Assembly (NCBI RefSeq): GCF_000962805.1
Contig: NZ_JZTW01000004.1
Span: 124,001-188,000, forward strand
Direction: 5' to 3'
From: Pseudarthrobacter chlorophenolicus
Lineage (GTDB): Bacteria > Actinomycetota > Actinomycetes > Actinomycetales > Micrococcaceae
DNA length: 64,000 nucleotides
Positions 20,787-35,772 of the stretch are shown in pieces; the stretch's first letter is position 1; each line of letters starts with the position of its first letter. The notes below the pieces were generated by a model that was given only the letters and a program-made list of their open reading frames with translations, had not been told where the DNA came from and did no database searches. The position numbers were made by a program, and so were the translations under genes.

Positions 20787-20992
20787 GGGATCTCCTTGGA
20801 GGGGTACGGCGGGACATCACTATCTTAGGTGCCACCGCGGTTGTTACTTGGCCAGCATGGGTACGGTTGCGGCAACGGCGGCGCGATTCTGGACTTCAGC
20901 CTATCTGCATGTAGAGTAATTCCGCGTACGTGAAGCGATCGCGTTGCTCACAATCAGCTGTGGGCGTACCTATCCTGCTTCGCGTATTCCGC

Positions 20993-21074
20993 GCCCGAGT
21001 GGCGGAATTGGCAGACGCGCCGCACTCAAAATGCGGTATCGAAAGGTGTGTGGGTTCGAGTCCCACCTCGGGCA
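20993..21074 (+). tRNA. tRNA-Leu (anticodon CAA)
   Basis: Acceptor arms GCCCGAG (20993-20999) and CTCGGGC (21067-21073) pair, with discriminator A. The anticodon stem CCGCA/TGCGG encloses CTCAAAA, giving anticodon CAA, which reads TTG. The T arm TGGGTTCGAGTCCCA is canonical and a long variable arm is present as expected for leucine. CCA is not encoded. An integrase remnant starts 88 bp downstream, so its 3' end is a likely attachment site. Confidence 0.95.
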
Positions 21075-21161
21075 CAGTATCGCCGCAGGTCAGGCGCCTG
21101 TTGAGCGGTTGAGTGTGGACAAAAACGCTCAAACTGTGAACAGCGGCGTAGCATTTTTTGC

Positions 21162-22291
21162 ATGGCCAGGATCCGCAAACGCGTGAAAAAGGACGGTACA
21201 CAGTCCTTCATGGTCTGCTGGCGGGATCCGAAGACGCGTTCTTCACAGGGCCTCACTGTCGCAACACTTCTCGAGGCTGAAACCCTCAAACGGCTTTTGG
21301 ACGCCAACGGTCAGACGTTCGAGATTGCGCAGCACGCGATGCTCACAAACGCGAAGCGCACACCCACTGTGGCGGAAGTCGTCCAGGACACAACGATCTT
21401 TTGGTTCGGCCCTCCAGCGGAACCACGAAGACCTACCAGGTGATGCTGGACCGGCATATCCGAAATGTCATCGGACATGTCCCGGTGGACAAGTTGGACT
21501 ACCGCCTCATGGCGCACTGGGTGAAGGCGATGGCCTCGAAAGGGCTGGCGCCTAAAACGATCCACAACATCCATGGCCTGATCTCGGCTGCGATGAACAC
21601 GGCTGAGATGCTGAGCTACATCACTCGCAACCCTTGTCGCGGGGTGCAGTAGCCGCCGATTGAGAAGGCTGAAGATGAAGCCATGTTCCTCACCCATGCT
21701 GAGTTCAGCTTGATCATGGAAGGCATGGGGGAGCGGTACAAAGCTTTCACCAATTTCCTGGTCATGACCGGTACCCGGTTCGGCGAGGCCACCGCCCTAA
21801 CTGTGGCGGACGTGGACCTGCTCTCCAAACCGCCCACCGCGCGGATCAACAAGGCCTGGAAACGGGACGGGCAGTCGCAGTTTTATATCGGTGCCACAAA
21901 GACCGGGGCCGGCAAGCGCACCATCGGGCTGAACCCTGCGCTGGTCTAGTTGCTGATCCCGCTAGTTTCTGCGCGGCCGGGCAAAGAGCTTGTTTTTACG
22001 ACGCCCACGGGCGGGCGAATCATCCACAAGCTCTATTGGCACCATTACTGGGTTCCTGCCGTTCGAACGGCGCAGGCCATCGGGCTGACGAAGAATCCCC
22101 GGATTCACAATCTGCGGCATACACACGCCTCGTGGTTGATCCAGGACGGGGTGCCGCTGTTCACGATATCGCGCCGGCTGGGACACGCCTCGACCAAGAC
22201 GACGGAGCAGGTCTACGGGCACCTAATGCCGGAAGCGTTGCAGGTCGGTGCTGATGCCACCGAGCGGTCGGTAACAGCCTTCCAGCGGTAG
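21162..22291 (+). pseudogene. tyrosine recombinase (phage-type integrase), broken
   Basis: Read across three interruptions, this is a nearly full-length site-specific integrase of about 375 residues. The first part (MARIRKRVKKDGTQSFMVCW, arm-binding/SAM-like) is in one frame to about 21400, then the frame changes. The core-binding part (KTYQVMLDRHIRNVIGHV) and catalytic domain continue in that second frame but carry two in-frame TAG codons (21650-21652 and 21947-21949). Catalytic residues are all preserved: Arg in TGTRFGEA, His-x-x-Arg in HNLRHTHASWL, His in RRLGHAS, Tyr in EQVYGHL. Position next to tRNA-Leu indicates an element that once integrated there. Confidence 0.9.
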
Positions 22292-22365
22292 CGGCACCGG
22301 GTCATGTAGGGGATTCCACGTTACGGCATGAAAGTGGAAGACAGCTCTTTTCTCCGGAGGTTTCC

Positions 22366-22610
22366 ATGGACATCGAATTCTTCGAGCCAGCCGAGGCGGC
22401 CGCTCTCATGTCCTGTTTGGGGAGGTGGAGTCTGGTGTCATCAGAGATGTGAAGCGCCGTTTGGTTGCGGGGGAAAGTGTAAGTTTGAACTGGTCGATGA
22501 TGACAATCCCGAGCAGTCAGCCGGGGCTTCCGTCTACGTTCCTGCTTCGCCATGGCTTTACCGGAGGCAAAGTAGCAACCAATTCATTCAATAACTTGCC
22601 GAAGTCATAA
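22366..22610 (+). pseudogene. short frameshifted gene after the integrase
   Basis: ATG at 22366 has an excellent ribosome site (CCGGAGGTTTCC) and opens MDIEFFEPAEAAALMS, but this frame stops after about 28 codons. The remaining coding-like sequence (GVIRDVKRRLVAGESVSLNWS to NNLPKS) lies in another frame up to 22610. Together they would make a protein of about 80 residues. I do not recognise it; it may be a small gene broken by one frameshift. Confidence 0.4.
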
Positions 22611-22620
22611 GGGCTAACAG

Positions 22621-23274
22621 ATGCGACAAAGTACAACGATCCACGATGCCTTCATTTCTGACGGCTTGCTGCGCCTCCAAAAAGAAGCCTTCTCCGAGGG
22701 AGGACCTGGTTACGGTGCGGAAGCTGTCGTTAGCACGTCATGGATACAGCAGACTCTGTCTCGTCGGTACGAAGATGTACAGCGGAACGGGCAATGGGGT
22801 TATCCCGACTTTGACGCCGAATTTTCCTATGAGGCGATGGACAGTTGGCTACTCGAGGTTCGCGCGCGCTCCTATGTCCCGGGAGAAGGGACATGGATAA
22901 CCTATAGGGTACACCTCTATCCTCAAGCAGAGGGACATCTGGAGGTGTTCGACGAAGAGCTCCTGTCCAGAGGCCTCTTTGCCACCCCCGGTGAGGAAGA
23001 TGCACCGTCTGACGCCGAGACGCTAAAATCAGAACTTATTGCCTTTCCCAGGACGGCAGAAAATATTCCGTCTTGGATGTGGAATACGTTTCGAACTGCC
23101 GGCGTCACACCGCCTTTATACAACTCAGAGCTCAATGCCGTCGAATGGGATAATCGGCGTCGGAAGGTGACAGAACGAGGTACGGACTTCACGGAAGAAC
23201 CTACAGTCATCGATGCTCATTTGGAGCCGGGCCTGTTTGGAAAAATCGGGAGAAAACTCTTCGGCCAAGGCTAG
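22621..23274 (+). CDS. hypothetical protein, 217 residues
   Basis: Not recognised. A soluble, acidic, Trp/Tyr-rich protein with no signal peptide or membrane segment; the C-terminus ends LFGKIGRKLFGQG, a short amphipathic basic helix. Its codons are clearly less GC-rich than those of the flanking core genes, pointing to horizontal origin. It lies 10 bp after the small broken gene and may share its transcript. The composition resembles single-domain immunity proteins, but that is inference only. Confidence 0.6.
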   Translation: MRQSTTIHDAFISDGLLRLQKEAFSEGGPGYGAEAVVSTSWIQQTLSRRYEDVQRNGQWGYPDFDAEFSYEAMDSWLLEVRARSYVPGEGTWITYRVHLYPQAEGHLEVFDEELLSRGLFATPGEEDAPSDAETLKSELIAFPRTAENIPSWMWNTFRTAGVTPPLYNSELNAVEWDNRRRKVTERGTDFTEEPTVIDAHLEPGLFGKIGRKLFGQG

Positions 23275-23314
23275 GTTCAGCACGGACTTACTCTGTGCTA
23301 ATCGGTGTGGGGCC

Positions 23315-23601
23315 ATGATGTTCATCCCCTTCTACACCTTCAGCCTGGTGATCTCCGACCCCGGAGCGTCGTGCAGGTGTTCACATACTTCCCACTGACC
23401 GCCCCGGTCACCGCCCTGCTCCGCAACGCGTTCGGCACCCTCAGCCCCCTCGAATCCGGCCTCGTCATCGCTGAACTGCCGATCGTCGGGATCCTCATCT
23501 TTCGCCTCGCCGTCCACCTGTTCCGGTACGGGGCCATCGCCTACGGCAAGAAACGCTCCATCGCCGGGACGTTCCGCCGCAGCGAACTCGCCGCCAAGTG
23601 A
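23315..23601 (+). pseudogene. C-terminal remnant of an ABC-2 type permease (NatB-like)
   Basis: Residues MMFIPFYTFSLVISDP are followed, after one frameshift near 23370, by SVVQVFTYFPLTAPVTALLR, then LESGLVIAELPIVG and LFRYGAIAYGKK. This is the characteristic last membrane region of ABC-2/NatB export permeases. Everything upstream of this last ninety or so residues is missing. Codon use is GC-rich like the core genome, unlike the preceding 217-residue gene, so this may be a piece of the ancestral chromosome cut by the island. Confidence 0.75.
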
Positions 23602-24029
23602 GTGACCCGGCGGCCATCGTTGAGACGTTCGTCCGGCTGACGTCGAGGTGCCTGGACGCCCTGCTCACGGTGTACGGAGGCAACGAAAGGCCGACGGTGT
23701 GGACCGGCTTGTGGCTCGTGCCACGGGATGGAAGTGACCCGGTCCGGTCCGGTGTCCTGGATGAGCTGGGTTCCTTCCACCTGCACGGAGTCGGGTGCCG
23801 CTTCGAACTAGACTCTGGGGAGGACCTGGATGTCGACTGGGACTGGGACGGGCGGGCAGTGTTCAATTCGTGGCGGATCCTGATGTACGCCCACTCGACG
23901 GGGGACGAGGCCGTCACCGAGCAGGCACTGAGGGCTACAGCGCTGCAAGCGCCGTCAGTGGTCGTCTTGGAAGCGGACAAATTCATTTTCTCGCACCGCC
24001 GGTATGACGTCACGAGGTCGGAATCATGA
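23598..24029 (+). CDS. DUF6896-like hypothetical protein
   Basis: Protein of 143 residues whose GTG start overlaps the TGA of the permease remnant (GTGA). The middle part LGSFHLHGVGCRFELDSGED followed by a DWDWDGRAVFNSWRI stretch fits what I recall of DUF6896 proteins (short, acidic, found near immunity-type genes). No signal or membrane segment. It overlaps the following lipoprotein gene by 4 nt, so the two are coupled. Function unknown. Confidence 0.65.
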   Translation: MSDPAAIVETFVRLTSRCLDALLTVYGGNERPTVWTGLWLVPRDGSDPVRSGVLDELGSFHLHGVGCRFELDSGEDLDVDWDWDGRAVFNSWRILMYAHSTGDEAVTEQALRATALQAPSVVVLEADKFIFSHRRYDVTRSES

Positions 24030-24517
24030 GGCTGAACTTCAGCCGGCGGTCAGCGGTCGCTGCCCTGGGCCTCGTCGTGTGCGGCATGCTGCTGACCGGC
24101 TGTTCATTGTTCGAGGTGCCCATACCCGCTAATGACGTGCAGGCCGCCGAAGTCGAAGGAACCTGGCACACCGACAACGGACCGGAGAAGCGGACCCAGC
24201 TCGAACTGCAGCCCAACGGCACAGCAGCCTGGACCGGAGTTCCCGGCGGCGTTTTCGACGGTTTCGCGTCAACGCCGACTCTGGACTGGGACAACAGGAC
24301 GGACTACTACGGCACTTGGACCCTGGAACAAGACCAATGCCCCGTTGGCAACGACTATCAGATTGTCCGGCTCCACGTGGAGAAGGAGAACAAGCCCTGG
24401 GTGTACTGGCTCTATGTCATGGGCCCAACAGATGGCAGAAGCCTGTACCAGTGGCTGGGCGACCCGGACAACGCCGATCGGCTAACCTTCCGCCGCGACG
24501 GCAACGACCCCGTGTGA
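24026..24517 (+). CDS. putative lipoprotein
   Basis: Protein of 163 residues with a lipoprotein signal peptide: basic start MRLNFSRR, hydrophobic core AALGLVVCGMLL and lipobox LTGC. The mature part is polar, with GTWHTDNGPEKRTQLELQPN and a second tryptophan-rich motif DYYGTWTLEQDQC that resemble repeats of a lipocalin-like or META-like small beta domain. ATG overlaps the stop of the preceding gene. Function unknown; anchored outside the membrane. Confidence 0.75.
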   Translation: MRLNFSRRSAVAALGLVVCGMLLTGCSLFEVPIPANDVQAAEVEGTWHTDNGPEKRTQLELQPNGTAAWTGVPGGVFDGFASTPTLDWDNRTDYYGTWTLEQDQCPVGNDYQIVRLHVEKENKPWVYWLYVMGPTDGRSLYQWLGDPDNADRLTFRRDGNDPV

Positions 24518-24749
24518 CTCGCCGCCACCGACACTAGGCGCCCTGCACGGCGACACGAACCGTGAGAGGCGCGGCCACATGTCAACCGGACCGGTCTTGC
24601 CCGCACGGGCCGTCACCGGCCTGCAGCCTACCTGTGGGGCCCAGACGGTCGGACCCGCGAACCGTTGGTAAACCGGCAGGATGAGGTGGCACGCTGTGTC
24701 TGTGCTGATTTGCAGGAGCGGGACCTGGTTGTACGCAGGAGATGTCACG

Positions 24750-24995
24750 ATGTCCGTGGACATCGTCGGCCTGCCTTACGACTTTTGGTTTGGGCTGGCT
24801 CAGATAGATGAGCAGCTCGAACCCGGTGAATCGGCTCAGCCGCTCGGCAAGGAAGGGCTGCTCTACTACGTGAGGTTTCGCCACGCCGGAGAGACCGAGG
24901 AACCCACCTGGCCGGATTCCGAAGGCCAGACCACCATTGAAGCTGCGGTCAGTATCGCCGAGCAACGCACCCCGAGCCAGATCACCTGGGCTTAG
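24750..24995 (+). CDS. hypothetical protein, 81 residues
   Basis: Small soluble acidic protein, MSVDIVGLPYDFWFGLAQID to TPSQITWA. I chose ATG 24750 since AGGAG lies 8 nt upstream; the frame is open further upstream but without sensible sequence. Not recognised. The 232 bp between the preceding lipoprotein gene and this start show no other feature. Confidence 0.5.
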   Translation: MSVDIVGLPYDFWFGLAQIDEQLEPGESAQPLGKEGLLYYVRFRHAGETEEPTWPDSEGQTTIEAAVSIAEQRTPSQITWA

Positions 24996-25217
24996 CCCGG
25001 GCTGAGGCCTGAACCTACCGCGTGACGACGCCAACTCCTGGGGCCAATAGGGCCATCGCAGCCTCCGCAAGGCCGACGAGTTCCGGTCCGCCGGCAACTG
25101 TTGCGATGCGGACAAGTTCGACGCCCTCGCCCGGCCGCGCTCAAAGCCTGATCCGTGCCTGCCAGCCATCGGCGTTTGCCCTGTTCAGAGCGGAATTACT
25201 GTGGAACACTTCGTGGC

Positions 25218-25775
25218 ATGAACGACCCCAGAAGCCGGATCCTTCCACTCCTCCGCCAAGACGAGAGACTCCTGTGGGTAGGGCAGCCCGACCCACGCGT
25301 CCGTTTCACCGGAGCGGATGCGTTTCTGATCCCCTTCAGTATTCTTTGGGGCGGTTTCGCGATCTTCTGGGAGGCAATGGCTGTCACCTCGGTCAAACAA
25401 CCCTTCTTCATCCTCTGGGGCATCCCCTTCGTTTTGGTCGGCCTGTACTTCATCTTCGGCAGGTTCATCTACAAGAAGCGGCGCAAACTCATCACGGCCT
25501 ACGCTCTTACAGACCGTCGGGCCATTGTCTGCACGGGTGAGCGGTCCGTTTCAGAAGCGCCCATCAGCGGCCTGACCACCAAAGTTGACCGAGCCAAGGA
25601 CGGCCGGCACGTCAGCGTGACGTTCGGGAGCCAGGGCCTCGGAGGACTGCTCGGGATGTACCAGAACACCGGAATGGACTTCTTCAGCTTGGGTCTCGGG
25701 CAGACGGTGGCCTTCTACGACGTCGAAGACACCGAAGGACTACTGGGTGCCTTGGACCAGTCCAGGGTTCTTTAG
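25218..25775 (+). CDS. PH-domain-like membrane protein
   Basis: Protein of 185 residues. An N-terminal soluble stretch (RQDERLLWVGQPDPRVRFTG) is followed by two membrane segments (about residues 38-60 and 67-90), then a domain beginning YALTDRRAIVCTG, the usual start of bacterial PH/YdbT-type domains, and ending in a GMDFFSLGLGQTVAFYDVED strand region. Similar architecture is widespread in actinobacteria with unknown function. ATG 25218 was chosen because the conserved region begins directly after it. Confidence 0.7.
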   Translation: MNDPRSRILPLLRQDERLLWVGQPDPRVRFTGADAFLIPFSILWGGFAIFWEAMAVTSVKQPFFILWGIPFVLVGLYFIFGRFIYKKRRKLITAYALTDRRAIVCTGERSVSEAPISGLTTKVDRAKDGRHVSVTFGSQGLGGLLGMYQNTGMDFFSLGLGQTVAFYDVEDTEGLLGALDQSRVL

Positions 25776-25827
25776 CGCCATGCGCCGGACGGGAGAATGA
25801 CTGCCCTTCGTCGAGAAGCTGCTTCCG

Positions 25828-25998
25828 ATGCGGGGCCCTGCGGACAGAATGATGCGCTACGTGGAGAACATCCGCCGCGAGGAAGCCACCTTCCGCGGCC
25901 AGCAGGTACTCGCCGCCTCGTCCCGAAATGCCCAATTCGCCTCCCTCTGGGACTCCGGAAAGCAGACAGAAGTGGAAGCACGGCCGGCCGCGCTCTAA
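25828..25998 (+). CDS. possible small protein or gene fragment
   Basis: Open frame of 56 residues (MRGPADRMMRYVENIRREEA onward) with strongly GC-rich third positions, which supports real or once-real coding. In-frame sequence continues upstream to a TGA at 25798, so it may be the tail of a truncated gene. Not recognised; it sits 52 bp after the PH-domain gene. Confidence 0.3.
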   Translation: MRGPADRMMRYVENIRREEATFRGQQVLAASSRNAQFASLWDSGKQTEVEARPAAL

Positions 25999-26045
25999 TC
26001 CATCGACTGGAAAGCCATCGACTACCGGGGAAAAATGCGAGCCAA

Positions 26046-26681
26046 TCAGTCCAGCATCTGCTGGGTGTCTGTTAGGAACCGTCCGAGTGCCCGAAACTCT
26101 CGTATGGGCACGGCAATGGCTAAGGTGACTGCGGTGCCCACGAGAACTATTAGCCACCACCAGGTTGAGTTCCTGCTGTTCAGAAGCTGCACCAGAAATT
26201 GCAGTTCAAGGATGGGGATGATCAAAATGAGCTGGGTGGCCAAGCCCTTCCTTTCCCGGACAGCGGCGGCACGCTTAACAACCAAGTGTTCTGGCGTCGC
26301 CGGAATTTTGCCCAGGATTTCCCGTCGCAACTGCTTCTGCTCGTGGGGCTGTAGGGACATCAGCACGTTGATCCGGCCCATTTCAACGGCAGGACCAATA
26401 ACCTTTGCGTTGTAGACGATGCCGCCGGCAATCGCTCCCAAATATGCCAGTGCTATTCCGGCGAAAAGGTAAGACAGGGAAGCGGCCCACTCGCCCTGGA
26501 AGAGCAGAAGGCCCACACCAGCGCCGACGACGAAAAGCAGCACCATACCCGTGGGGAAGTATGTCGTGAAGTACCGTTTGACGGCCTGATCCAGGCCTTT
26601 GTCGGCAATACCTTCGGCACGGCGCTCCGCCTTGGCCCACCGGTCTGCGGATCCGGCCAGCAAATCGTCGACTCCGGCCAT
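26046..26681 (-). CDS. hypothetical membrane protein, 211 residues
   Basis: Starts MAGVDDLLAGSADRWAKAE with a clear GGGAGG site 6 nt upstream. Four predicted membrane segments in two hairpins: MVLLFVVGAGVGLLLF and LSYLFAGIALAYLGAIAGG, then a cytoplasmic charged part (SLQPHEQKQLRREILGKIP), then LILIIPILELQFLVQLL and WWWLIVLVGTAVTLAIAV. No recognised family. Confidence 0.6.
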   Translation of the reverse strand: MAGVDDLLAGSADRWAKAERRAEGIADKGLDQAVKRYFTTYFPTGMVLLFVVGAGVGLLLFQGEWAASLSYLFAGIALAYLGAIAGGIVYNAKVIGPAVEMGRINVLMSLQPHEQKQLRREILGKIPATPEHLVVKRAAAVRERKGLATQLILIIPILELQFLVQLLNSRNSTWWWLIVLVGTAVTLAIAVPIREFRALGRFLTDTQQMLD

Positions 26682-26729
26682 GGGTACCTCCCGGTTTGAA
26701 CTCCATCCACATGCACTTCTACGTCCACG

Positions 26730-26900
26730 CTACTTCTGGGCTGGAATTCGGCAAGGAAGTTGATGAAGACTTTGGACACTCGTCCAGCCAGAGGTGTTCG
26801 CCTCCGGCGAGTGCCGGAGCCCGTGCAGCGGCCAGTCCAGTTCGCCGTTGATGACAGAGCGGGAAGCACCCTGCACCGTCCACATCGTCTCAGGGTCCAT
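26730..26900 (-). pseudogene. truncated small gene (56 residues)
   Basis: ATG at 26900 opens MDPETMWTVQGASRSVINGE followed by LDWPLHGLRHSPEANTSGW, which reads like the first half of a compact folded protein, perhaps an immunity-type family with a conserved Gly-Trp. After Gly-Trp the sequence degrades and stops at 26730; a neighbouring frame stays open further. I read it as a frame-shifted remnant. It is the only feature I see in the 330-bp gap 26682-27011. Confidence 0.35.
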
Positions 26901-27011
26901 GCCTTGATTCTGCCTCAGTATCCAGGCTGCTCAGCGTCTGGTTCGTGTCATGGGGCTCGGCATGCCCCTCTCTGCCATAGTGGTGTCACCGACAGGCAAT
27001 CGAGAGGGGCG

Positions 27012-27413
27012 ATGATGGGCGCATGGGGCTACCTGCCGTTTGAGAACGACGACGCGATGGACTGGCTGGCTGAACTCGACGCCGGCGGGACTGAGGCCGT
27101 CCGAACCGCGCTGGCCAAGACGGGGGAGGGCTATGTGGAGGCGCCCGAGGGCAGCGTTGCTGTCGCGGCCGCCGAGGTCATCTCCGCCAGTCAGGGCAAT
27201 CCGCCCGGCATCCTACCGGAGAACGTCGCTGACTGGGTGACCGCACACGGGCGGGGAATCACCGCTGAGGACGTGGAGCTCGCCCGGGAAGCCGTCCAAC
27301 GGGTCGCAGGGGATGAGTCCGAACTGGCTGAGCTCTGGGACGACGCCGACGAAATCGAATGGCGCGAATCCCTCGACGACCTTGCCGAGCGGCTTCGGAC
27401 CGCGCTGCGGTAG
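27012..27413 (+). CDS. DUF4259 domain protein
   Basis: Protein of 133 residues with the DUF4259 opening MGAWGYLPFENDDAMDWLAEL, an alanine-rich middle (VAAAEVISASQGNP) and a helical acidic end (LWDDADEIEWRESLDDLAE). DUF4259 proteins occur widely as small cytosolic proteins next to polymorphic-toxin and immunity genes. Start could be the ATG at 27012 or the adjacent one at 27015; GAGAGGGG lies just upstream. Confidence 0.8.
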   Translation: MMGAWGYLPFENDDAMDWLAELDAGGTEAVRTALAKTGEGYVEAPEGSVAVAAAEVISASQGNPPGILPENVADWVTAHGRGITAEDVELAREAVQRVAGDESELAELWDDADEIEWRESLDDLAERLRTALR

Positions 27414-27438
27414 TTGTGAGGCGCGGCGTCGAGGCTTG

Positions 27439-27717
27439 TCAGTCTGCTGCCCGTAGGAGTGTTTCGAACTGGCTCAGCGAGACAACGCTCTTACGGTCCA
27501 CGTCGAGCTCGTCCTCCACGGTGGCTGTGCCTGCATCGACGTCCAGCAGCACGTTGAAGGTGTTGTACGTCAGGTATTGCAGTCCGGCCTGCCGCTGCTC
27601 AATGATCATCAGCAGCTGCGCGCGGATGTAGTCGTTCGCCTCGCCGGCAAGAAACTCATCGATCGGCGTCGGCGACATCTTCACTAAAGCCTTCGTGAGG
27701 CGGTGCTGCCGGCTCAC
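27439..27717 (-). CDS. hypothetical protein, 92 residues
   Basis: GTG start at 27717 overlaps the stop of the upstream small membrane protein (GTGA). Sequence includes DEFLAGEANDYIRAQLLMII and an acidic LDVDAGTATVEDELDVD. No membrane segment. Not recognised; translational coupling to its neighbour supports it being real. Confidence 0.5.
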   Translation of the reverse strand: MSRQHRLTKALVKMSPTPIDEFLAGEANDYIRAQLLMIIEQRQAGLQYLTYNTFNVLLDVDAGTATVEDELDVDRKSVVSLSQFETLLRAAD

Positions 27718-27944
27718 CGTTCAGGATGGGTGCCGCTTCGCCTCGATCGCCACCCGAGGACGGCCATCGAGAGCCAGAAGATCGTGAATGCAGCGCCGGC
27801 GATGACGAATACCCAGTCGACGCCGGTCCAGTGCCCCTCGCCGAGCCGGATCAGCGGCGGCGCGATCAGGCAGACGCCCAAAATGGCGCCCAAGACTTGC
27901 GCCCGAGAACTCCGAAAGTACGGGTCTACCTGCATTTTCCCCAT
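27714..27944 (-). CDS. small membrane protein, 76 residues
   Basis: Begins MGKMQVDPYFRSSRAQVLG and has two hydrophobic segments (LGAILGVCLIAPPLI and VFVIAGAAFTIFWLSMAVLG) with a basic C-terminus RSRRSGTHPER. Not recognised. It forms a two-gene unit with the 92-residue gene downstream. The 228 bp upstream (27945-28172) contain only an unsupported 75-codon frame. Confidence 0.5.
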   Translation of the reverse strand: MGKMQVDPYFRSSRAQVLGAILGVCLIAPPLIRLGEGHWTGVDWVFVIAGAAFTIFWLSMAVLGWRSRRSGTHPER

Positions 27945-28172
27945 GCCGCAGTCTCTCAGCTCCCTACCCTTGTGACTAGTCGCGACGTGGGCCAGCCGCC
28001 GGTCCCACAGGGTGCATCGTCGGCCTGCTTCCTGGGAGGGTTCCGCCAGCCCGGAATCTCGTCCAAGGCCGCAGCGTAGTCGGGGGAGGGGATGCCCACC
28101 GAGGCTTCCTTCCGCCGGGGGCCAGCCAGATCATCGCGTTTGGGCGATGCCATCCGCGTCTCGTCCGGGCGT

Positions 28173-28757
28173 CTAGTAGGCATCCCAGCCCCGCGCTTCC
28201 GGGTTCACGGTCCGTGCCAGCGCCGCGTAGGCTTCGTCGTCCGCGTCGAGGTGGCCGGAGGGGTGAAGGAAGAAGATTCCGCGGTCAAAGGCTGCTACGA
28301 AGGTTTCGAACATCGACGAAACGGTCAGGTACAGCACGTGATGTTCTGGTTCTCCCAGCATGAAGTGGCGTACGTGCCCCCAGCTGCCCGGGTTGTCGGA
28401 GCAGTCCACCGCGAAGAAGTCGCCACCCCCATTCGCCAGCAGCGGCAGCCACGACGGGTTCCACCGTGCGTCGTCCCGGAACACTGCGTGGTTGGCGAGT
28501 GTTTCGTAGAGGCTAGGGAAGTAGAAGCCCGGGATGATGTGGATGTCATCGAGCATGGCACCTGGATAGTCCAGGGTCCCGTCGCGCCACGCATAGAGTT
28601 TGATGACATCGCCGGGCAAGACAAGTCCGGCGTTGGCGGCCTTTTCAAGCAGGATCCGTTCGGGCAGGCCGGCCTGCAGCACTCCGGTGACAGGCCGGCT
28701 GAGAACGGAGAGATGCCCGAGAAGCTCCGGCAGGGAGTTGTCGAGATCAGCGGGCAT
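28173..28757 (-). CDS. SMI1/KNR4 (SUKH-type) family protein
   Basis: Protein of 194 residues with the SUKH pattern: GDVIKLYAWRDGTLD early, then PGFYFPSLYETLANH, and the diagnostic LPLLANGGGDFFAVDCSD followed by a W/V-rich strand and a helix ending SMFETFVAAFDRGIFFLHP. SUKH proteins commonly neutralise nuclease-type polymorphic toxins, but also occur as orphans. TAGGTT lies 6 nt before the ATG with no ribosome site, a probable leaderless start. Confidence 0.8.
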   Translation of the reverse strand: MPADLDNSLPELLGHLSVLSRPVTGVLQAGLPERILLEKAANAGLVLPGDVIKLYAWRDGTLDYPGAMLDDIHIIPGFYFPSLYETLANHAVFRDDARWNPSWLPLLANGGGDFFAVDCSDNPGSWGHVRHFMLGEPEHHVLYLTVSSMFETFVAAFDRGIFFLHPSGHLDADDEAYAALARTVNPEARGWDAY

Positions 28758-28794
28758 AGGTCGAACCTAGCAGCTGCAGTCTCCGCCCTCGTCG

Positions 28795-29151
28795 CTAAGC
28801 CAGCTCTGCAGGGTCAGACACTATGTCGGCCTTCGTTTTGGGCAGCCTCCGTCGAGGGGAAAAGTCCACCCTCCAGCTGTCGAGTTCGTAGACGTCGTCA
28901 TCCGTGTCCAGATTCAGGGCAACCTGGACCGGGAAGTTGTCACTGTCTTTGAACCAACCCTCCGCGAGCGTCCGTCCGTACTCCCGGTCTGGTTTGCTGC
29001 TATGAAATTGGAGGCTGCCCATGCCGCCGTCGTTCGTGTCACTTACGAGCAAAGCCGAGAGATCTAGAGCATTCCATCGCGGCTGGCCTGTGCGCTCAAG
29101 CAGTGCTTGAACGATGACAATTTCGCCTGGGAGAAGCGGTCTGAGAGTCAT
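28795..29151 (-). CDS. DUF6984-like small protein
   Basis: Protein of 118 residues. MTLRPLLPGEIVIVQALLER, then NDGGMGSLQFHSSKPDREYG, VQVALNLDTDDDVYELDSW and DFSPRRRLPK, a combination I associate with DUF6984 proteins found in immunity-like gene sets. Start preceded by TAGGAT plus 6 nt, a leaderless arrangement. Function unknown; assignment is from memory of the motif pattern. Confidence 0.6.
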   Translation of the reverse strand: MTLRPLLPGEIVIVQALLERTGQPRWNALDLSALLVSDTNDGGMGSLQFHSSKPDREYGRTLAEGWFKDSDNFPVQVALNLDTDDDVYELDSWRVDFSPRRRLPKTKADIVSDPAELA

Positions 29152-29217
29152 CTGAAAATCCTAAGCTTGGCCGGCGCGCAGAATTTGCACATTATGCCGA
29201 CCCCTTCAGAGGGTCCG

Positions 29218-29619
29218 CTACCGCCGTGCCGTGAACAGTGCCTGCACGTCTTCGCTGGCACGGCTGAGCTCTTCGCCGGCGTCGAGGGTCACCGTGCCGC
29301 TGACACGCCATTCTTCGGGGGAGAAAGGATCCTGGAGAGTGAAGTGCAGCTTGACGTGGCTTCCGGTGTGGGTGGCCTCCAGCAGCAAGTCGCCCTCAAT
29401 GGACTCGTAGGTCCGTGCCCCGTCCCAGCCCCGCCAGTTCTCGGCCAGGCCATTGAAGAATTCCCTGAGGTCCGCGGACGTATACAGGTAGACCTCTCGC
29501 TGCGCGGACAGGCCTTCCAACGCCACGGAGACGGTCACGCCGGCGATTTCGCCGCCGGATTCGCGGCGGACAGTGCGAAAGGTGAGCCGCGCAGACTGGC
29601 CGATCTCAGCCTTTTCCAT
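29218..29619 (-). CDS. DUF6228-like protein
   Basis: Protein of 133 residues, MEKAEIGQSARLTFRTVRR onward. The core ENWRGWDGARTYESIEGDLL, then GSHVKLHFTL and LDAGEELSRASEDVQALF match my recollection of the DUF6228 family of small beta-rich actinobacterial proteins. I chose ATG 29619 because GAGAGG lies 6 nt upstream, inside the end of the preceding 304-residue gene, which it overlaps by 14 nt, so the two are coupled. Confidence 0.65.
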   Translation of the reverse strand: MEKAEIGQSARLTFRTVRRESGGEIAGVTVSVALEGLSAQREVYLYTSADLREFFNGLAENWRGWDGARTYESIEGDLLLEATHTGSHVKLHFTLQDPFSPEEWRVSGTVTLDAGEELSRASEDVQALFTARR

Positions 29620-30520
29620 CGTCATCCTCTCGAGCCTCATTCTCCTCGGCTTCTGCTGCTTCCTGCTTGGCCAGAACCTCCTGGAAGCGCAACTCCATAG
29701 CGCTCGGGGGCCTTGGGGGCGCGGGCGCCCGGAGCCGGACGCGGTGCCAGTCCAGTGTCTCGACGTCAGCGGATTCGCGCAGGGCATCGATCAGGTCCTT
29801 GCTGCCGAACACCCTGGTGCCCATCAGGTCGTAATCAGTCCACAGCACCCACGTCCGATCCTCGGGCCACCACAGCTCCGGGCTGAACTCCTGCCCTCCG
29901 GTGGCGAGCATCGAGGGCAGCATGGTCGCCAGATTGAAGGAGAACACCCGGATGGATTCGGCCTCGAAGATGTTGGTGATGGGCGAGAACCTGCCGAGCA
30001 TCCGGGTCGAGCCGGTATGCGCTGCCAGGACGGGAACGAGCGCCTCCAAATCAGCTTTCCCCAGAGAGCCTTCCGTTGGCCACAGTGAATCTTGGGGTGC
30101 CACGCCGGGAGGCATGACCACGTAGTCGGCGCCGCTATCGTTCAGCAGGGCCGACCAGCAGTAGGCGGGCGGAATCTCAATGCCGTCGTCGCCGGCGGGC
30201 CCCTGCAGCGGGACACCTTTGTCGGCGGCAGTTTCTTCCCAGTTGATCCGCTGCCACCCAGCAGGGGCGTGCGTGCCGAAGCCGAAGCCCGGAAGACGGG
30301 CACCATCTTCTGGCTCGGGAGCCACATCGGCCGGCCGGAAGAACTGGGCGTGAAGGATCCAGGTGCTGTGCGAAAAACCATCGGGAAGCCGGTCGCAAAG
30401 AAGGTCTGCCAGGAGTCCATCGCCAAAGAAGCCCTCGCCCAGCCATGCCAGTTCCGGGCCAGCCAAACCCTCCCAAGACCAACCTTCGGGCAGTGCCCGC
30501 AGTTCTTCTGATTCCCCCAT
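29606..30520 (-). CDS. hypothetical protein, 304 residues
   Basis: Soluble acidic protein. Notable segments: WILHAQFFRPADVAP near residue 55, TRMLGRFSPITNIFEAES in the middle, and EDRTWVLWTDYDLMGTRVFG near the end, a tyrosine-aspartate pattern seen in many small uncharacterised actinobacterial proteins. A Glu/Ala-rich tail forms a probable coiled coil. TAGGCT sits 6 nt before the ATG without ribosome site. It heads a two-gene unit with the DUF6228-like gene. Confidence 0.6.
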   Translation of the reverse strand: MGESEELRALPEGWSWEGLAGPELAWLGEGFFGDGLLADLLCDRLPDGFSHSTWILHAQFFRPADVAPEPEDGARLPGFGFGTHAPAGWQRINWEETAADKGVPLQGPAGDDGIEIPPAYCWSALLNDSGADYVVMPPGVAPQDSLWPTEGSLGKADLEALVPVLAAHTGSTRMLGRFSPITNIFEAESIRVFSFNLATMLPSMLATGGQEFSPELWWPEDRTWVLWTDYDLMGTRVFGSKDLIDALRESADVETLDWHRVRLRAPAPPRPPSAMELRFQEVLAKQEAAEAEENEAREDDDGKG

Positions 30521-30529
30521 GGGATGAGC

Positions 30530-30736
30530 CTACCGGCGGTCGTAACTAGAGGAATGACTCCCAAGGCGCTGTTCACTGACTGCGAGGGGTGCGCCGGGAT
30601 CCGAGAGCGGGTTGTCCCGGGCTTCAGCCGCCGGCGGCTGGCGGGACTTGGCCAGGACAACCAGCAGCGTCAGGACGGTAACCGTCCAGCCGATCCCGGT
30701 GAGCAGCACCAGGCCGATTGCCGCTAAGGGGTGCAT
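30530..30736 (-). CDS. possible small membrane protein, 68 residues
   Basis: One strong hydrophobic segment (AAIGLVLLTGIGWTVTVLTLLVVLA) after a three-residue N-terminus, then a polar tail. It reads away from the 304-residue gene's promoter region and ends 10 bp before its start. No ribosome site is obvious, so confidence is low. Confidence 0.3.
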   Translation of the reverse strand: MHPLAAIGLVLLTGIGWTVTVLTLLVVLAKSRQPPAAEARDNPLSDPGAPLAVSEQRLGSHSSSYDRR

Positions 30737-30953
30737 GGCGACAGTCTAGGGCCGGGGAACCGGGCGGCATGGCTGAAACTCCGGCTCGGCTGTCAACCGG
30801 AGCCCGAACATGGGAAAGGGTGCGCTCCCGTTCGCTGAACGCGCCCTTCTCGCTTCCCCCTACCCGCTCCCTTTCCGAATGTCACCATGCAAGCATGCTT
30901 AGGACCTTGGCAGGTAAGCCATCCAAACGTCTACCTATTGCCGCGGGCTACTG

Positions 30954-31487
30954 TCAGCGACCCCACCGGCGTTCCAGCCATCGAAGGTACAACTGTCTGC
31001 TGTTCCTGAAGAGCCACCCCGAGCGGGCCAAGCCAGCGGCCACGCTGAGGATTGCTGTGGCCAGCAGCCCGGTGTAGGGGAGTGTCTCGAGGGAAGTGCC
31101 GCGGGGCGTCAGGAAGATCATGGCGGCCGCAATCAGCACCGCGGCGATCACCAGGACTTTGACCAAACCGGGGGTGAGCCGAATTCCTTGCTCCAGCCGT
31201 GGCAGGTCCTTGGCCGGTTTCGGTAGCTTCGTCGAGAACCGAACTCCTATGGTCAGGAGCCAGCCGGCGGCGGAAATCGGCGCGCCCAGGAAGATCGTTT
31301 CCCGGCCGCGGCTGGTGTCCTGACCGACCAGGCCGGAGAGCATTGCATCGACAGCGCCCGTTATTGCCAGTGCCGCTCCGTAAAACCAGGCCCAAAAGAT
31401 CCAGGACCGGCGCTGCGCGTGGCCAAGTTCGAGAGCCCGTTCATCTGCCGCCATCGCGGTGGCATCCCCCAATGTCATGAACCGCAC
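30954..31487 (-). CDS. hypothetical membrane protein, 177 residues
   Basis: Four hydrophobic segments: FWAWFYGAALAITGAVDAML, FLGAPISAAGWLLTIGV, VLVIAAVLIAAAMIFL and GLLATAILSVAAGLA. The N-terminal 25 residues are polar (ATAMAADERALELGHAQRR) and the end is basic and tryptophan-rich (RQLYLRWLERRWGR). No recognised family. Start could be ATG 31487 or the internal ATG nine residues downstream. Confidence 0.55.
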   Translation of the reverse strand: MRFMTLGDATAMAADERALELGHAQRRSWIFWAWFYGAALAITGAVDAMLSGLVGQDTSRGRETIFLGAPISAAGWLLTIGVRFSTKLPKPAKDLPRLEQGIRLTPGLVKVLVIAAVLIAAAMIFLTPRGTSLETLPYTGLLATAILSVAAGLARSGWLFRNSRQLYLRWLERRWGR

Positions 31488-31817
31488 TCTACCTGCAGGC
31501 TATGGCCCGCCCGCCCCGCCGGCCGTATAACGATGAGCCGCGCCGGAACAACCGCACACATGCCTCCCATGACCAACATCCTCGCTAATGTCGATCGTCC
31601 GCTCCGTCGACGTCCTGCTGCCGAGGACCGCTGCATCCGGACGCCCGAAGCCCGGGCCAGCCTCCCCAAGGGCATCATTACCATCGAGGCCGACGACTGC
31701 CTTGCCAGCGGGATCAGCAAGTCCACCAGCGCCGGGATCAGGCCGACAGTCGTCTTACCGGCACCGGTTCTGGTCACGCCAAAATTCGCAATAGATGCTG
31801 GTGAGACAAAGACCTAT
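31488..31817. other. intergenic stretch without a supported gene
   Basis: The 330 bp contain only overlapping arginine/proline-rich open frames typical of random GC-rich sequence. One minus-strand frame begins MTRTGAGKTTVG, superficially like a P-loop, but no other ATPase motif follows. I see no gene here. Confidence 0.5.
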
Positions 31818-31852
31818 CTGATATGTTTTTAGTGATCTTATAGATATATCAG
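31818..31852 (+). promoter_or_regulatory. AT-rich inverted repeat upstream of the aminotransferase remnant
   Basis: CTGATAT (31818-31824) and ATATCAG (31846-31852) form a 7-bp inverted repeat separated by 21 bp of AT-rich sequence in an otherwise GC-rich region. The placement, about 60 bp before the ATG of the aminotransferase remnant, fits an operator with a promoter between the arms. Confidence 0.4.
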
Positions 31853-31908
31853 TGCTTGTCGAGTCTCTTCGCGGCTCGACCGTCAGCTCAATGAGGAGTG
31901 GATTGGCA

Positions 31909-32180
31909 TGAAAGAACTCGCGCACCGGCTCGGTCGTCTGGGCACGGAAACCGCCGACAGCGTCGCCCAAGGGCGGACGCCAGGAAGTCGATGGGGAACC
32001 GCGTATACCCCTTCCATCTGGGCCACATCAATATTCAGACCACGCCACACATGACTGAGGCAAGCCCGTAATTACGAAATTCCTGCAGGCAATCATGAAC
32101 CCGGGCCAGGAACTGCTCTGCCCGAACCCCGGCTTCCCGATCTAGGAATCGCAGATCGAGTACCAACGTTCTGGCAGTGC
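31909..32180 (+). pseudogene. PLP-dependent aminotransferase (class I/II), remnant
   Basis: ATG at 31909 begins MKELAHRLGRLGTETADSVA. After a frameshift the neighbouring frame gives NRVYPFHLGHINIQTTPHM, the early part of class I/II aminotransferases. About 55 codons are then missing, and the sequence resumes with PVITKFLQAIMNPGQELLCP, then NPGFPI, an in-frame TAG where homologues have tyrosine, and ESQIEY. Everything beyond, including the PLP lysine, is absent. This is a clearly decayed gene at the right edge of the island, just before pntA. Confidence 0.7.
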
Positions 32181-32406
32181 TCAGCCGAGGAGCGCCGCGC
32201 GCACCGAATAATTAGAGGCGACTGGCGCCCGCGGACTACAAACCAGGCCTGGCAGTAGCCCCCTCCCTTGGGGACGGTGCGAAGCTACTTAGCTCCCGGC
32301 GTCGTCCGTCTCGACGGCGGCTGGTCTTCGTATGCAGGACAGGTCCCTACTGCCTCCCGGCAACAGTAGTCACCGGGGAATCGCACGTTAAAGAGAGAGA
32401 TCATAA

Positions 32407-33966
32407 GTGACACGTATTGGCATTGTCGCCGAATTAGGTAGCGAGACACGGGTGGCGGCGACGCCCACCACGGTGAAGCGGTTGTTGGAGTTGGGCTACG
32501 AGATTGTGGTCGAGAAGGGCGCAGGGGAGTCCTCGGCTTTTCGAGATGAGGACTACGAGGCCGCAGGTGCCTCGGTGGTGGGTGCTGATGAGGCGTGGGG
32601 CAGTGAGGTGGTGCTGCGGATCAATCCACCCTCGGAGGAGGAGATTGGCCGTTTGGCTGACGGTGCGACGCTGATTGGGATGCTGGCGCCGGGTCTGCGG
32701 CCGGAACTGGTGGAGGCACTTGCGGCGCGTCCTATTACGGCGCTGGCGTTGGACGCTGTTCCGCGGATTTCGCGTGCGCAGTCGATGGATGTGCTCAGTT
32801 CGATGGCGAATATCGCCGGGTATCGTGCGGTGATTGAGGCTGCCCACGAGTTTGGCAGGTTCTTCACGGGCCAGGTGACTGCGGCGGGCAAGGTCCCGCC
32901 GGCAAAGGTCCTGGTGGCGGGTGCAGGTGTTGCCGGGCTGGCGGCGATCGGTGCGGCATCGAGCCTGGGCGCGATTGTGCGTGCGACGGATCCGCGGCCC
33001 GAGGTCGCGGATCAGGTGAAGTCCATTGGCGGGTCCTACCTCAAGGTGGAGGTTGAGGAGGAGATGAAATCCTCGGACGGGTACGCCAAAGCAACGTCGG
33101 AGGCATACAACCGGCGGGCAGCGGAGATCTACTCCGAGCAGGCAGCCGATGTGGACATCATCATCACCACCGCCCTGATCCCGGGCCGGCCGGCGCCGAA
33201 GCTGCTCACGGCCGATGACGTGGCCGCGATGAAGCCGGGCAGCGTGATTGTTGACATGGCTGCCGGCCAGGGCGGGAACGTGGAAGGCTCAGTGGCCGGG
33301 GAGCGGACCGTCACCGAAAACGGTGTAGTCATCCTCGGCTACACGGACCTGCCGACCCGGTTGCCGGCCCAGGCCTCGCAGCTGTACGGAACTAACCTGT
33401 TGAACCTTCTTAAGCTCCTCACCCCGGAGAAGGACGGGCAGCTGAGAATCGACTTCGACGACGTCGTCCAGCGTTCAGTGACGGTGGTGCGGGAGGGTGA
33501 GAAGACCTGGCCGCCGCCCCCGGTGCAGGTCTCCGCTGCCCCCGCTCCTGCCGCCCAAGCCCAAACCGTGGCTGAAGAAGCAAGTTCGCCGAAGGAGAAG
33601 GAAGGCCTCAGTCCTGCGGGCAAGGCGCTCTTGTTCGCTTCGGGGATCGCGGCCCTCTTCGGCATCAACACCGTGGCCCCGGCGCCGCTGCCGCAGCACT
33701 TCACGGTGCTGATGCTTTCGGTCGTGGTGGGCTTTTACGTCATCGGGAAGGTCCACCACGCCCTTCACACCCCATTGATGTCCGTCACCAACGCGATCTC
33801 GGGGATCATCGTGGTCGGTGCCCTGCTTCAGGTCACTTCGGAGAACCCGGTGGTGCAGGTCCTCGCGGCCGTCGCTGTCCTGCTGGCCAGCATCAACATC
33901 TTCGGCGGTTTCGCCGTGACCCGGCGCATGCTCGCCATGTTCTCGGCCGGGAAGGCACGTTCATGA
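32407..33966 (+). CDS. pntA: proton-translocating NAD(P) transhydrogenase, alpha subunit
   Basis: Protein of 519 residues. Domain I (NAD-binding) spans about residues 1-370: [20 protein letters not shown], the [22 protein letters not shown] dinucleotide fold, and [14 protein letters not shown] Pro/Ala/Gln-rich linker (about 375-400) leads to four membrane segments of domain II, ending [19 protein letters not shown] and a basic tail. It exchanges hydride between NADH and NADP+ driven by proton flux. GTG start at 32407 with an AGAGAGA stretch upstream. The first third uses noticeably fewer C-ending codons (many GTG, GCG, CGG, TTG) than the rest. Confidence 0.95.
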
Positions 33967-35438
33967 GCCACGCCACCGAAGCAACAGAAATCATCTCGAG
34001 GAGCCTTACTTTGCCTGACGCCGTCTCTGGTCCGCTGACCGCGGAATCCATCGCCGGGGCGGCCTACGTCGTCGCGGCCCTGCTGTTCATCCTCAGCCTC
34101 GCCGGGTTGAGCAAGCACGAACGAGCCAAGGCCGGCGTCATCTACGGCATCACCGGCATGGTCATCGCGCTGGCTGCCACGGTCTGGCTGACCGTGCAAG
34201 GTGCCTGGGGAACAAACCACGGCCTGACCGGCCTGGCCCTGCTCGTCGCCGCCGTCCTGGTGGGCGGTGCGATCGGACTCTGGCGCGCCCGGGTGGTCGA
34301 GATGACCGGCATGCCCGAGCTCATCGCGCTGCTGCACAGCTTCGTCGGCCTGGCCGCGGTGCTCGTTGGATGGAACGGCCACCTTCAAGCCCCGCACCTG
34401 ACCGGAGCCTTGAAGGACGTCCACCACGCCGAAGTGTTCATCGGCGTCTTCATCGGAGCGGTCACCTTTACCGGCTCCATCGTCGCGTTCCTGAAACTGT
34501 CGGCCCGGATGAAATCCTCACCGCTGATGCTGCCCGGCAAAAACGCCATCAACCTCGGCGCCCTCGCCGTCTTCGTCGCCTTAACCGTCTGGTACGTCAA
34601 TGACTCCCAGCTCTGGCTCCTCGTCGTCGTGACGGTGCTTGCCCTCGGACTGGGGTGGCACCTGGTGGCCTCCATCGGCGGCGGCGACATGCCCGTCGTC
34701 GTGTCCATGCTCAACAGCTACTCCGGCTGGGCCGCGGCCGCGGCAGGCTTCCTGCTGAACAATGACCTGCTGATCATCACCGGTGCACTGGTTGGTTCCT
34801 CCGGCGCTTACCTGTCCTACATCATGTGCAAGGCCATGAACCGGTCCTTCATCTCCGTGATAGCCGGCGGCTTCGGCATCGCCGCCCCCGCCAGCAAAGG
34901 AGACACAGACCAGGGCGAGCACCGTGAAATTACGGCCGAGGCAACAGCCGAAATGCTCACCAACGCCTCGTCCGTCGTGATCACCCCCGGCTACGGCATG
35001 GCCGTCGCCCAGGCCCAATACCCCGTGGCCGAACTCGCACACCAATTGCGCGAACGGGGAGTGAACGTCAGGTTCGGGATCCACCCCGTCGCCGGACGCC
35101 TGCCCGGGCACATGAACGTCCTCCTTGCCGAAGCCAAGGTCCCCTACGACATCGTTTTGGAAATGGATGAAATCAATGACGACCTCGACAGCACCTCCGT
35201 GGTCCTGGTCATCGGCGCCAACGACACCGTCAACCCCGCCGCCGCAGAAGACCCCGGCAGCCCCATCGCCGGAATGCCTGTCCTCAAAGTGTGGGGAGCC
35301 GAGAATGTCGTCGTGTTCAAACGCTCAATGGCCGCAGGCTACGCCGGAGTCCAGAACCCGCTGTTCTTCCGGGACAACTCGCAGATGCTCTTCGGCGACG
35401 CCAAACAACGCGTCGAAGACATCCTCAAGGCCTTCTAG
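33963..35438 (+). CDS. pntB: proton-translocating NAD(P) transhydrogenase, beta subunit
   Basis: Protein of 491 residues whose ATG overlaps the pntA stop (ATGA). Around nine membrane segments occupy the first 290 residues, with [20 protein letters not shown] and [20 protein letters not shown]. The NADP-binding domain III follows: [37 protein letters not shown]-like [31 protein letters not shown] and [13 protein letters not shown]. It completes the proton-pumping transhydrogenase, supplying NADPH for biosynthesis, here possibly for the downstream methionine unit. Confidence 0.95.
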
Positions 35439-35532
35439 TTCCCCAGACCTGTCCTTCTCCCGCGGGAATGTCCTTGACCCTTGTGTGGTCCGGGCACCTG
35501 CTCTCACCACCTATGAACCGAGATGAGAGACG

Positions 35533-35772
35533 ATGATTCTGCGCCGACTGTTTCGCACCAGTAGTCCGATCAACGGGACACCATCGAATGAACCGGAGCC
35601 GATGCCCAAAACCGGGCAAACACCGTTGCACCCTGTCAGTTTCATTGACGAGATCGTTGCGTCATCGTGGGTAGGACTTCACTACAGGCACGAGTTCTTG
35701 CTCCATCACAAACACGAACTGTTGGAACACCACCATGCGGTGTGTCGAACCAACATCCGTAAGACCTCCTAG
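35533..35772 (+). CDS. possible small His-rich protein
   Basis: Open frame of 79 residues, MILRRLFRTSSPINGTPSNE onward, with a C-terminal segment LHYRHEFLLHHKHELLEHHH that contains nine histidines and an internal repeat (HEFLLHHK / HELLEHHH), followed by one cysteine. GAGAG precedes the ATG. GC at third positions is lower than in pntB, so it may not be a gene. It is the only candidate in the 373-bp gap 35439-35811. Confidence 0.3.
   Translation: MILRRLFRTSSPINGTPSNEPEPMPKTGQTPLHPVSFIDEIVASSWVGLHYRHEFLLHHKHELLEHHHAVCRTNIRKTS

What the first reader, a model, noticed from the sequence alone, without database searches (positions are those of the whole stretch)
22366..31487. Orphan immunity-like gene island without visible toxins
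Over about 9 kb there are SMI1/KNR4, DUF4259, DUF6896-, DUF6984- and DUF6228-like proteins, a PH-domain protein, several tiny membrane proteins and unknowns, in both orientations with short coupled pairs. These kinds of genes accumulate as immunity repertoires against polymorphic toxins of neighbours. No WXG100, LXG, RHS or nuclease toxin is present. The unknown 217-, 304- and 92-residue proteins are candidates for new immunity families.
Basis: partly seen in the sequence, partly recalled or inferred. Interest (0 to 1): 0.65.

Follow-up and report, generated by a model that had tools for sequence, protein, structure and literature searches.

The report
Orphan toxin-antidote genes in decayed island
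A broken-down mobile element in a soil-type bacterium's chromosome carries small genes that look like antidotes to rival bacteria's toxins, and one of them still sits beside the stump of the DNA-cutting toxin it probably neutralised.

Summary
The gene content is confirmed (DUF6896, DUF4259, SUKH-1, DUF6984, DUF6228 and unknowns). Two things were missed. The stretch lies behind a tRNA-Leu and a broken tyrosine recombinase: a decayed integrative island, with no right att copy found. And a toxin trace is present: 22416-22610 encodes the last ~64 codons of a type VII (WXG100-type) nuclease toxin, directly before the 217-residue unknown (g217).

g217 is the best-supported antidote. In the 206 held genomes of the genus it occurs in 18, the toxin tip in 19, both in 13; 27 of 46 g217 matches have a tip within 150 bp upstream. 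Its predicted fold matches EsaG and other DUF600/Imm36 proteins best (Z 8.1-9.0; next 5.0), over residues 8-156 of 217. The tip's only significant match among solved structures is EsaD, EsaG's target. No Pfam model recognises g217 as DUF600.

For the other genes the case is weaker: rare, accessory, and six recur on a second tRNA-Thr element in another species, but no recognised secreted toxin was seen directly beside them, and some DUF6228 copies lie in surroundings without one. TM211 and TM177 are common membrane proteins. Partly supported; new member of a known kind.

The parts
20993..21075 (+). tRNA-Leu(CAA); its 3' end (21055-21075) is the att core of the site
   Evidence: ARAGORN; the same tRNA is in 24 of 24 fetched relatives; att copies at both ends of inserts in L034-L036
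21162..22291 (+). tyrosine recombinase pseudogene: one frameshift and two in-frame stops
   Evidence: Phage_integrase 3.8e-12 on the last piece; frames; all four pieces in one frame in 8 of 24 relatives
22363..22412 (+). start of a small gene like L117 4738-5076, cut off; 'excisionase-like' is my reading, no Pfam match
   Evidence: tblastn 45% over 42 aa, E 3.7e-7; no family for the relative
22416..22610 (+). C-terminal remnant (~64 codons) of a T7SS nuclease toxin; the conserved GGH stretch lies outside it
   Evidence: tblastn E about 1e-11; only tip match in G000, E 2.1e-10; alignment A3
22621..23274 (+). g217: EsaG/Imm36-like orphan immunity protein
23305..23601 (+). C-terminal stump of an ABC-2 permease (412 aa in G073)
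   Evidence: 84% to L100 6058-7296, ABC2_membrane_3
23598..24029 (+). DUF6896 protein
24026..24517 (+). lipo163, lipoprotein-like unknown
   Evidence: 79.5% to L100; no family
24681..24995 (+). 104-residue unknown
25012..25134 (+). fragment like a PspA gene
   Evidence: 61% over 41 aa to L117 1944-2672
   Evidence: 79% to L117; no Pfam match
25816..26025 (+). C-terminal stump of a PspA/IM30 gene
   Evidence: 66% to L117, PF04012
26046..26681 (-). TM211 membrane protein, common in the genus
27012..27413 (+). DUF4259 protein
27439..27717 (-). 92-residue unknown
   Evidence: 90% to L100
27714..27944 (-). 76-residue membrane protein
28013..28117 (-). fragment of a 216-residue gene that is whole in G073
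   Evidence: 80% over 35 aa to L100 12792-13442
28173..28757 (-). SMI1/KNR4 (SUKH-1) protein
28795..29151 (-). DUF6984 protein
29218..29625 (-). DUF6228 (weakly WapI-like) protein, coupled to g304
29606..30520 (-). g304, 304-residue unknown
   Evidence: pairs with DUF6228 in L116 and L098
30530..30736 (-). 68-residue membrane protein
30954..31487 (-). TM177 membrane protein, common in the genus
31705..31785 (-). inverted fragment of an integrase gene
   Evidence: 73% to the left integrase, 82% to L039

Best explanation
This is a decayed integrative island at a tRNA-Leu hotspot, and its surviving cargo includes at least one orphan immunity gene. The 217-residue protein (g217) is a divergent EsaG/Imm36-type immunity protein that binds and inactivates a His-Me-finger (NucA-type) nuclease tip of a type VII secretion toxin. 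A deletion removed nearly all of the toxin, left its last ~64 codons next to a cut small gene, and spared g217, so this cell cannot make the toxin but may survive it when neighbours deliver it. The rest (SUKH-1, DUF6896, DUF4259, DUF6984, the g304-DUF6228 pair) is most likely a collected set of further immunity or defence genes moved between species by integrases. Shown: the tRNA/integrase setting, the toxin remnant, the g217-toxin association, the fold match of a confident model, and six of the genes on a second integrative element. Inferred: that g217 inhibits the nuclease, that it protects this cell today, how the deletion happened, and that the remaining genes are immunity genes.
For: Toxin-g217 gene order in six fetched T7SS-type loci and tandem g217 copies; toxin tail just before g217 in the window; 13 of 206 genomes with both against 18 with g217 and 19 with the tip, Fisher p 1.5e-12, or 1.2e-11 without the own genome; 27 of 46 g217 matches with a tip within 150 bp upstream; all 7 of 150 genomes with the EccD-like marker carry g217, G000 lacks marker and toxin N-terminus; g217 model pLDDT 88.5, best matches EsaG/BH3703, Z 8.1-9.0 against 5.0 next; tip profile matches EssD/EsaD nuclease, E 1.4e-5; orphan g217s at one shared place in four genomes under dN/dS 0.12-0.20; six genes of the block in a tRNA-Thr element of G073 with a 62-bp repeat.
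Against: 19 of 46 g217 matches have no tip within 150 bp and five of 18 genomes have no tip match; none of 24 g217 members matches DUF600; Foldseek E is not below 1e-3 and the match covers residues 8-156 of 217, with Z only just above what models without clear relatives often reach; related genomes are counted as independent in the Fisher test. For the other genes no secreted toxin was seen directly beside them, DUF6228 often lies in places without one, TM211 and TM177 are common and not toxin-linked. No right att copy; a 27-bp, 93% match on contig C23 was not followed. dN/dS of g217 against G481 is 0.05 but dS is 1.94, and the toxin stump itself gives 0.14, so present selection on the window copy is not proven.
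Confidence: 0.7

Rival explanations
1. The island is only debris: g217 and the others are leftovers of deleted toxin loci and mobile elements with no present function, not yet eroded.
For: Integrase broken; toxin, permease and PspA genes are stumps; no right att copy; toxin stump and permease stump keep dN/dS of 0.14 and 0.21, no higher than most whole genes, so low dN/dS here mostly reflects the relatives' history.
Against: g217, SUKH-1 and the DUF genes are whole open frames amid stumps; elsewhere toxin-less g217 copies stay under dN/dS 0.12-0.20 in four genomes.
Confidence: 0.2
2. g217 is immunity, but the other genes are unrelated accessory cargo (regulators, membrane or phage-defence proteins), so there is no immunity repertoire, only one orphan.
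For: No secreted toxin seen directly beside DUF6896, DUF4259, DUF6984, DUF6228, g92 or lipo163 (mostly by eye); ABC and PspA genes travel with the block; TM211 and TM177 in at least 25 and 29 of 150 genomes.
Against: SUKH-1 is a known immunity superfamily (PMC3482391, passages); DUF6228 is weakly WapI-like; g304 sits by barstar, DUF6984 and DUF6228 and near the G108 toxin locus; a stand-alone endonuclease lies in the G073 block.
Confidence: 0.35
3. g217 is a chaperone or adaptor for secretion of the toxin rather than its antidote.
For: It is a neighbour of the toxin gene in the T7SS locus.
Against: It follows the toxin, repeats in tandem and beside detached tips (five pairs in G232), is kept without toxin or secretion marker, and folds most like EsaG.
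Confidence: 0.06

Closest known systems
EsaD-EsaG, Staphylococcus aureus T7SSb nuclease and antidote (PMC9616950: abstract and passages read)
   Same: T7SS-type toxin ending in a nuclease of the same family; antidote gene after it, in tandem copies; fold of residues 8-156; orphan antidotes in strains without the toxin, as reported for esaG (PMC9484751, abstract and passages).
   Different: Actinobacterial locus with an EccD-like gene; g217 is not matched by the DUF600 model and has a conserved extra C-terminus (residues ~157-217).
Imm36/DUF600 and heterogeneous polyimmunity loci (PMC3482391: passages and the section on polyimmunity loci read)
   Same: BH3703-like fold with NucA-type toxin association; different immunity-type genes collected without whole toxins, beside a recombinase, varying between genomes.
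   Different: Genes on both strands, stumps of other genes between them, a toxin-tip remnant included, most members not proven immunity.
rAID, recombinase-associated acquired interbacterial defence of Bacteroidales (PMC12247911, passages)
   Same: Tyrosine recombinase and short orphan immunity-type genes.
   Different: Recombinase broken and tRNA-associated; genes not co-oriented; no shared intergenic motif found; T7SS rather than T6SS toxin.
Orphan toxin-tip/immunity modules of CDI and Rhs loci (PMC3150448, seen in the search listing only)
   Same: Detached toxin tips with their immunity gene, as in G232, G033, G131 and the window.
   Different: Type VII toxin; here the tip is too short to hold the conserved GGH stretch.

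Membership tests
Imm36/DUF600 (EsaG family), for g217 | match to the DUF600 profile | tested here: not met
   0 of 24 members match it
Imm36/DUF600 (EsaG family), for g217 | BH3703-like fold | tested here: met
   Z 9.0 (rmsd 3.8, 119 aligned), 8.3, 8.2, 8.1 against EsaG and BH3703; next 5.0; Foldseek E 4e-3; partial, residues 8-156
Imm36/DUF600 (EsaG family), for g217 | gene next to a NucA-type nuclease toxin | tested here: met
   27 of 46 copies within 150 bp; tip matches EssD/EsaD and PF13930 in relatives
Imm36/DUF600 (EsaG family), for g217 | binds and inhibits the nuclease | not testable with these tools
   needs the bench
Heterogeneous polyimmunity locus | several structurally unrelated immunity families together | tested here: inconclusive
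   g217 and SUKH-1 well supported, the others not proven
Heterogeneous polyimmunity locus | same orientation, short spacing | tested here: not met
   both strands are used
Heterogeneous polyimmunity locus | no toxin genes or cassettes between the immunity genes | tested here: inconclusive
   no whole toxin found, but a toxin-tip remnant at 22416-22610
Heterogeneous polyimmunity locus | recombinase nearby in several cases | tested here: met
   broken tyrosine recombinase 21162-22291
rAID element | tyrosine recombinase | tested here: inconclusive
   present but broken; kinship to the rAID recombinase not tested
[quoted passage not shown]
   both strands
rAID element | conserved intergenic motifs | tested here: not met
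   the repeat search of 20900-36000 gave no family repeated between the genes (repeats under 14 bases not looked for)
Integrative element at a tRNA gene | integrase and att core at the tRNA | tested here: met
   the integrase is broken
Integrative element at a tRNA gene | second att copy at the far end | tested here: not met
   none in the window with 3 mismatches nor by BLAST on the rest of the contig to the right

The most novel reading that the evidence does not exclude
Arthrobacter-clade bacteria run an EsaD-EsaG-like type VII warfare system whose antidote family is invisible to current profiles. Non-producing species pick up and keep single antidotes, some on integrase-borne islands together with further, still unnamed immunity families (DUF6896, DUF6984, the g304-DUF6228 pair, lipo163, g92), as a mobile 'vaccination' set comparable to Bacteroidales rAID.
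Probability: 0.4. Interest if true: 0.62.

Novelty: new member of a known kind. Interest (0 to 1): 0.5.

Why it matters
It ties an unannotated protein family to a defined toxin partner and a testable mechanism (the EsaG mode of prying the nuclease apart), extends EsaD-EsaG-type conflict to a common soil actinobacterial group, and catches a toxin locus after the weapon was lost and the antidote kept. Two different integrative elements carrying the same genes make it possible to ask whether orphan immunity travels as mobile cargo in Gram-positive soil bacteria.

Tried and rejected
Tried without result: DUF6896 'rings' in E. coli in the tool's control, so I read the five rhs loci of K-12; ydcD, ybfB and ybfC have no Pfam match at 0.01, so I could not place DUF6896 behind an Rhs toxin. 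pntA as right-hand anchor failed because it is itself accessory. Plasmids: g217 no match, DUF6984 in 5 records under 60% identity; contexts not opened. Viral contigs: no g217 relative. Paper search for the four DUF names: one paper, with DUF4259 only, seen in the listing. Searches combining EsaG and Actinobacteria, orphan immunity/Arthrobacter/polymorphic toxin, and Arthrobacter with type VII secretion: I saw nothing on this family in the rows listed (4 of 4 papers, 10 of 48, 15 of 33), so nothing is claimed beyond those rows.

Considered and rejected: an anti-phage system (PADLOC on ten of the island's proteins: one weak match, SUKH, 6.5e-5); a defined rAID element (co-orientation and motifs not met). 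g304: best structural row a CDI complex chain, Z 4.6, rmsd 3.6, 108 aligned, no Foldseek match below E 0.5, model pLDDT 68.5: too weak to use. dS to G073 (0.13-0.59) could not be set against core genes, as none were fetched. Neighbours were judged mostly by eye; only those were scanned with Pfam. One search scored at most 4 candidates per genome, so its counts are lower bounds.
Full report
WHAT IS THERE. The window lies in a 4.39-Mb genome of a genus in which relatives that could be named are titled Arthrobacter, Paenarthrobacter or Pseudarthrobacter (identification with the unnamed handles rests on contig length and position). The surroundings change the picture. A tRNA-Leu(CAA) at 20993-21075 is followed by a tyrosine recombinase broken by a frameshift and two in-frame stops. 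The same tRNA is in 24 of 24 fetched relatives; all four recombinase pieces follow it in 8 of 24 and two pieces in one more. In L034, L035 and L036 a conserved downstream flank is pushed 9-14 kb away behind a second copy of the tRNA 3' end. In the window no second copy was found to the right, nor on the rest of its contig; one 27-bp, 93% match lies on contig C23 and was not followed. So the element is decayed or truncated. An inverted piece of the same kind of integrase lies at 31705-31785. G+C is 58-64% here against 64-68% to the left, but also 61-65% for some 20 kb to the right, so composition does not mark the right end.

THE 217-RESIDUE PROTEIN. In relatives g217 homologues stand behind a large protein (~780-800 residues where whole), preceded in L108 by a WXG100-like protein (below cut-off, 1.2e-5), a 101-residue protein and a DUF6507 protein; the large protein ends in an Endonuclea_NS_2 domain in four of six toxins scanned, one of six has a TNT domain and one no match. 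Searched back against the window, these toxins match 22416-22598, ending in the stop at 22610, just before g217 (E about 1e-11). An independent search of all 206 held genomes of the genus with a toxin tip returned this place as the only match in G000 (E 2.1e-10). Of the 206 genomes, 18 have g217, 19 the tip, 13 both (Fisher p 1.5e-12; genomes are related, so this is indicative). Of 46 g217 matches, 27 have a tip within 150 bp upstream on the same strand, 34 within 1.5 kb; of the 41 matches of at least 450 bp, 25 have one within 150 bp. Six genomes have a tip without g217 and five g217 without a tip. In a sample of 150 genomes the EccD-like marker of the locus is in 7, all carrying g217, and the toxin N-terminus in 9, eight of them carrying g217; G000 has neither. 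In G232 five tip-g217 pairs follow one another.

FOLD. The g217 model (24-sequence alignment, pLDDT 88.5, pTM 0.82) matches EsaG (8guo_A, 8gup_A) and BH3703 best by Foldseek (best E 4e-3, none below 1e-3) and by VIA-align (Z 9.0, 8.3, 8.2, 8.1; next entry 5.0). The tool warns that Z near 8 can be a common arrangement; here the four top rows are one family and stand 3 above the rest. The toxin-tip profile, searched against all solved sequences, matches only the EssD/EsaD nuclease with significance (E 1.4e-5 and 5.5e-4; next 0.18). Thus the antidote's fold and the toxin's sequence point independently to the same pair. EsaG inhibits EsaD by splitting the nuclease domain into two fragments (PMC9616950, abstract and passages); I infer a similar mode here. 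Imm36 (DUF600, BH3703-like fold) is listed as chiefly associated with Tox-NucA and as found in polyimmunity loci (PMC3482391, passage). None of 24 g217 members matches DUF600 in Pfam, so by profile it is not filed there.

ORPHANS THAT LAST. Four genomes without a tip match (G125, G130, G483, G487) hold a g217 at one shared chromosomal place between the same neighbours (L167-L170). Pairwise dN/dS is 0.12-0.20; the G483 copy is shortened. Antidotes can therefore be kept without the toxin. The window copy against G481 (82% aa, with an uninterrupted toxin, L165) gives dN/dS 0.05, but dS is 1.94 and the toxin stump also gives 0.14 over 64 codons, so this comparison does not date the loss.

THE OTHER GENES. 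In G073 DUF6896, lipo163, DUF4259, g92, SUKH-1 and DUF6984 (79.5-92.4% aa) stand in the same order, with other genes between, inside a ~31-kb stretch that has its own uninterrupted integrase and is bounded by a 62-bp direct repeat (98%) of a tRNA-Thr end. One gene between them is a stand-alone DNA/RNA non-specific endonuclease (PF01223); whether it is a toxin is unknown. The window version has lost parts: an ABC permease and a PspA gene are stumps. The cargo has thus ridden two different integrative elements. g304 and DUF6228 overlap in the window and on contig C7 of the own genome, and are separated by one small gene in G117; g304 relatives stand beside DUF6984 in G373 and barstar in G069, and 4.7 kb from DUF6228 in G136. 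In G108 a g304 in two pieces lies beside the toxin/g217 locus. In an evenly drawn sample of the order DUF6228 is in 6, DUF6984 in 3 and DUF6896 in 1 of 297 genomes, the own genome included. Against an immunity role: around the DUF6228 copies of five other genomes I saw no toxin within 1.5 kb, by eye, one neighbour scanned without a match, and TM211 and TM177 occur in at least 25 and 29 of 150 genomes without one in the loci looked at. I regard g217 as well supported, SUKH-1 as an immunity protein by family, and the rest as open.

VERDICT. It is a new member of a known kind: an orphan-immunity island with an unrecognised EsaG-like family.

Noticed in passing
32407-35438: pntAB transhydrogenase genes are themselves accessory: copies of pntA at 87-90% identity in 8 of 36 same-genus relatives, three full copies each in G016 and G025, two in G015.
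   Followed up: no
48425-49273: GmrSD C-terminal-domain protein whose relatives stand right after the tRNA-Leu integrase in L037 and L043, and in part in L039: possible debris of the same kind of element 27 kb away.
   Followed up: no
L176, L100, L177 (G073:C1, about 1188250-1219707): About 31-kb integrative element at tRNA-Thr(CGT) with integrase, HTH protein and a stand-alone non-specific endonuclease, carrying six of the window's genes.
   Followed up: partly
L166 5061-11016 (G232): Array of five toxin-tip/g217 pairs in a row.
   Followed up: partly
L109 13845-15959 (G023): Toxin with an N-terminus 91% like that of the nuclease toxin of L108 but a TNT-like tip: tip exchange.
   Followed up: no
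L036 2961-9851 (G011): Another occupant of the same tRNA-Leu carries a DUF6119 protein, an AAA ATPase and an S8 protease.
   Followed up: no
L174 4408-5340 (G000 contig C10): A second DUF6984 gene in the own genome beside a 165-residue protein without a Pfam family.
   Followed up: no
43924-47388: 1154-residue surface-type protein with F5/8 type C and Ig-like (Big_4) domains.
   Followed up: no
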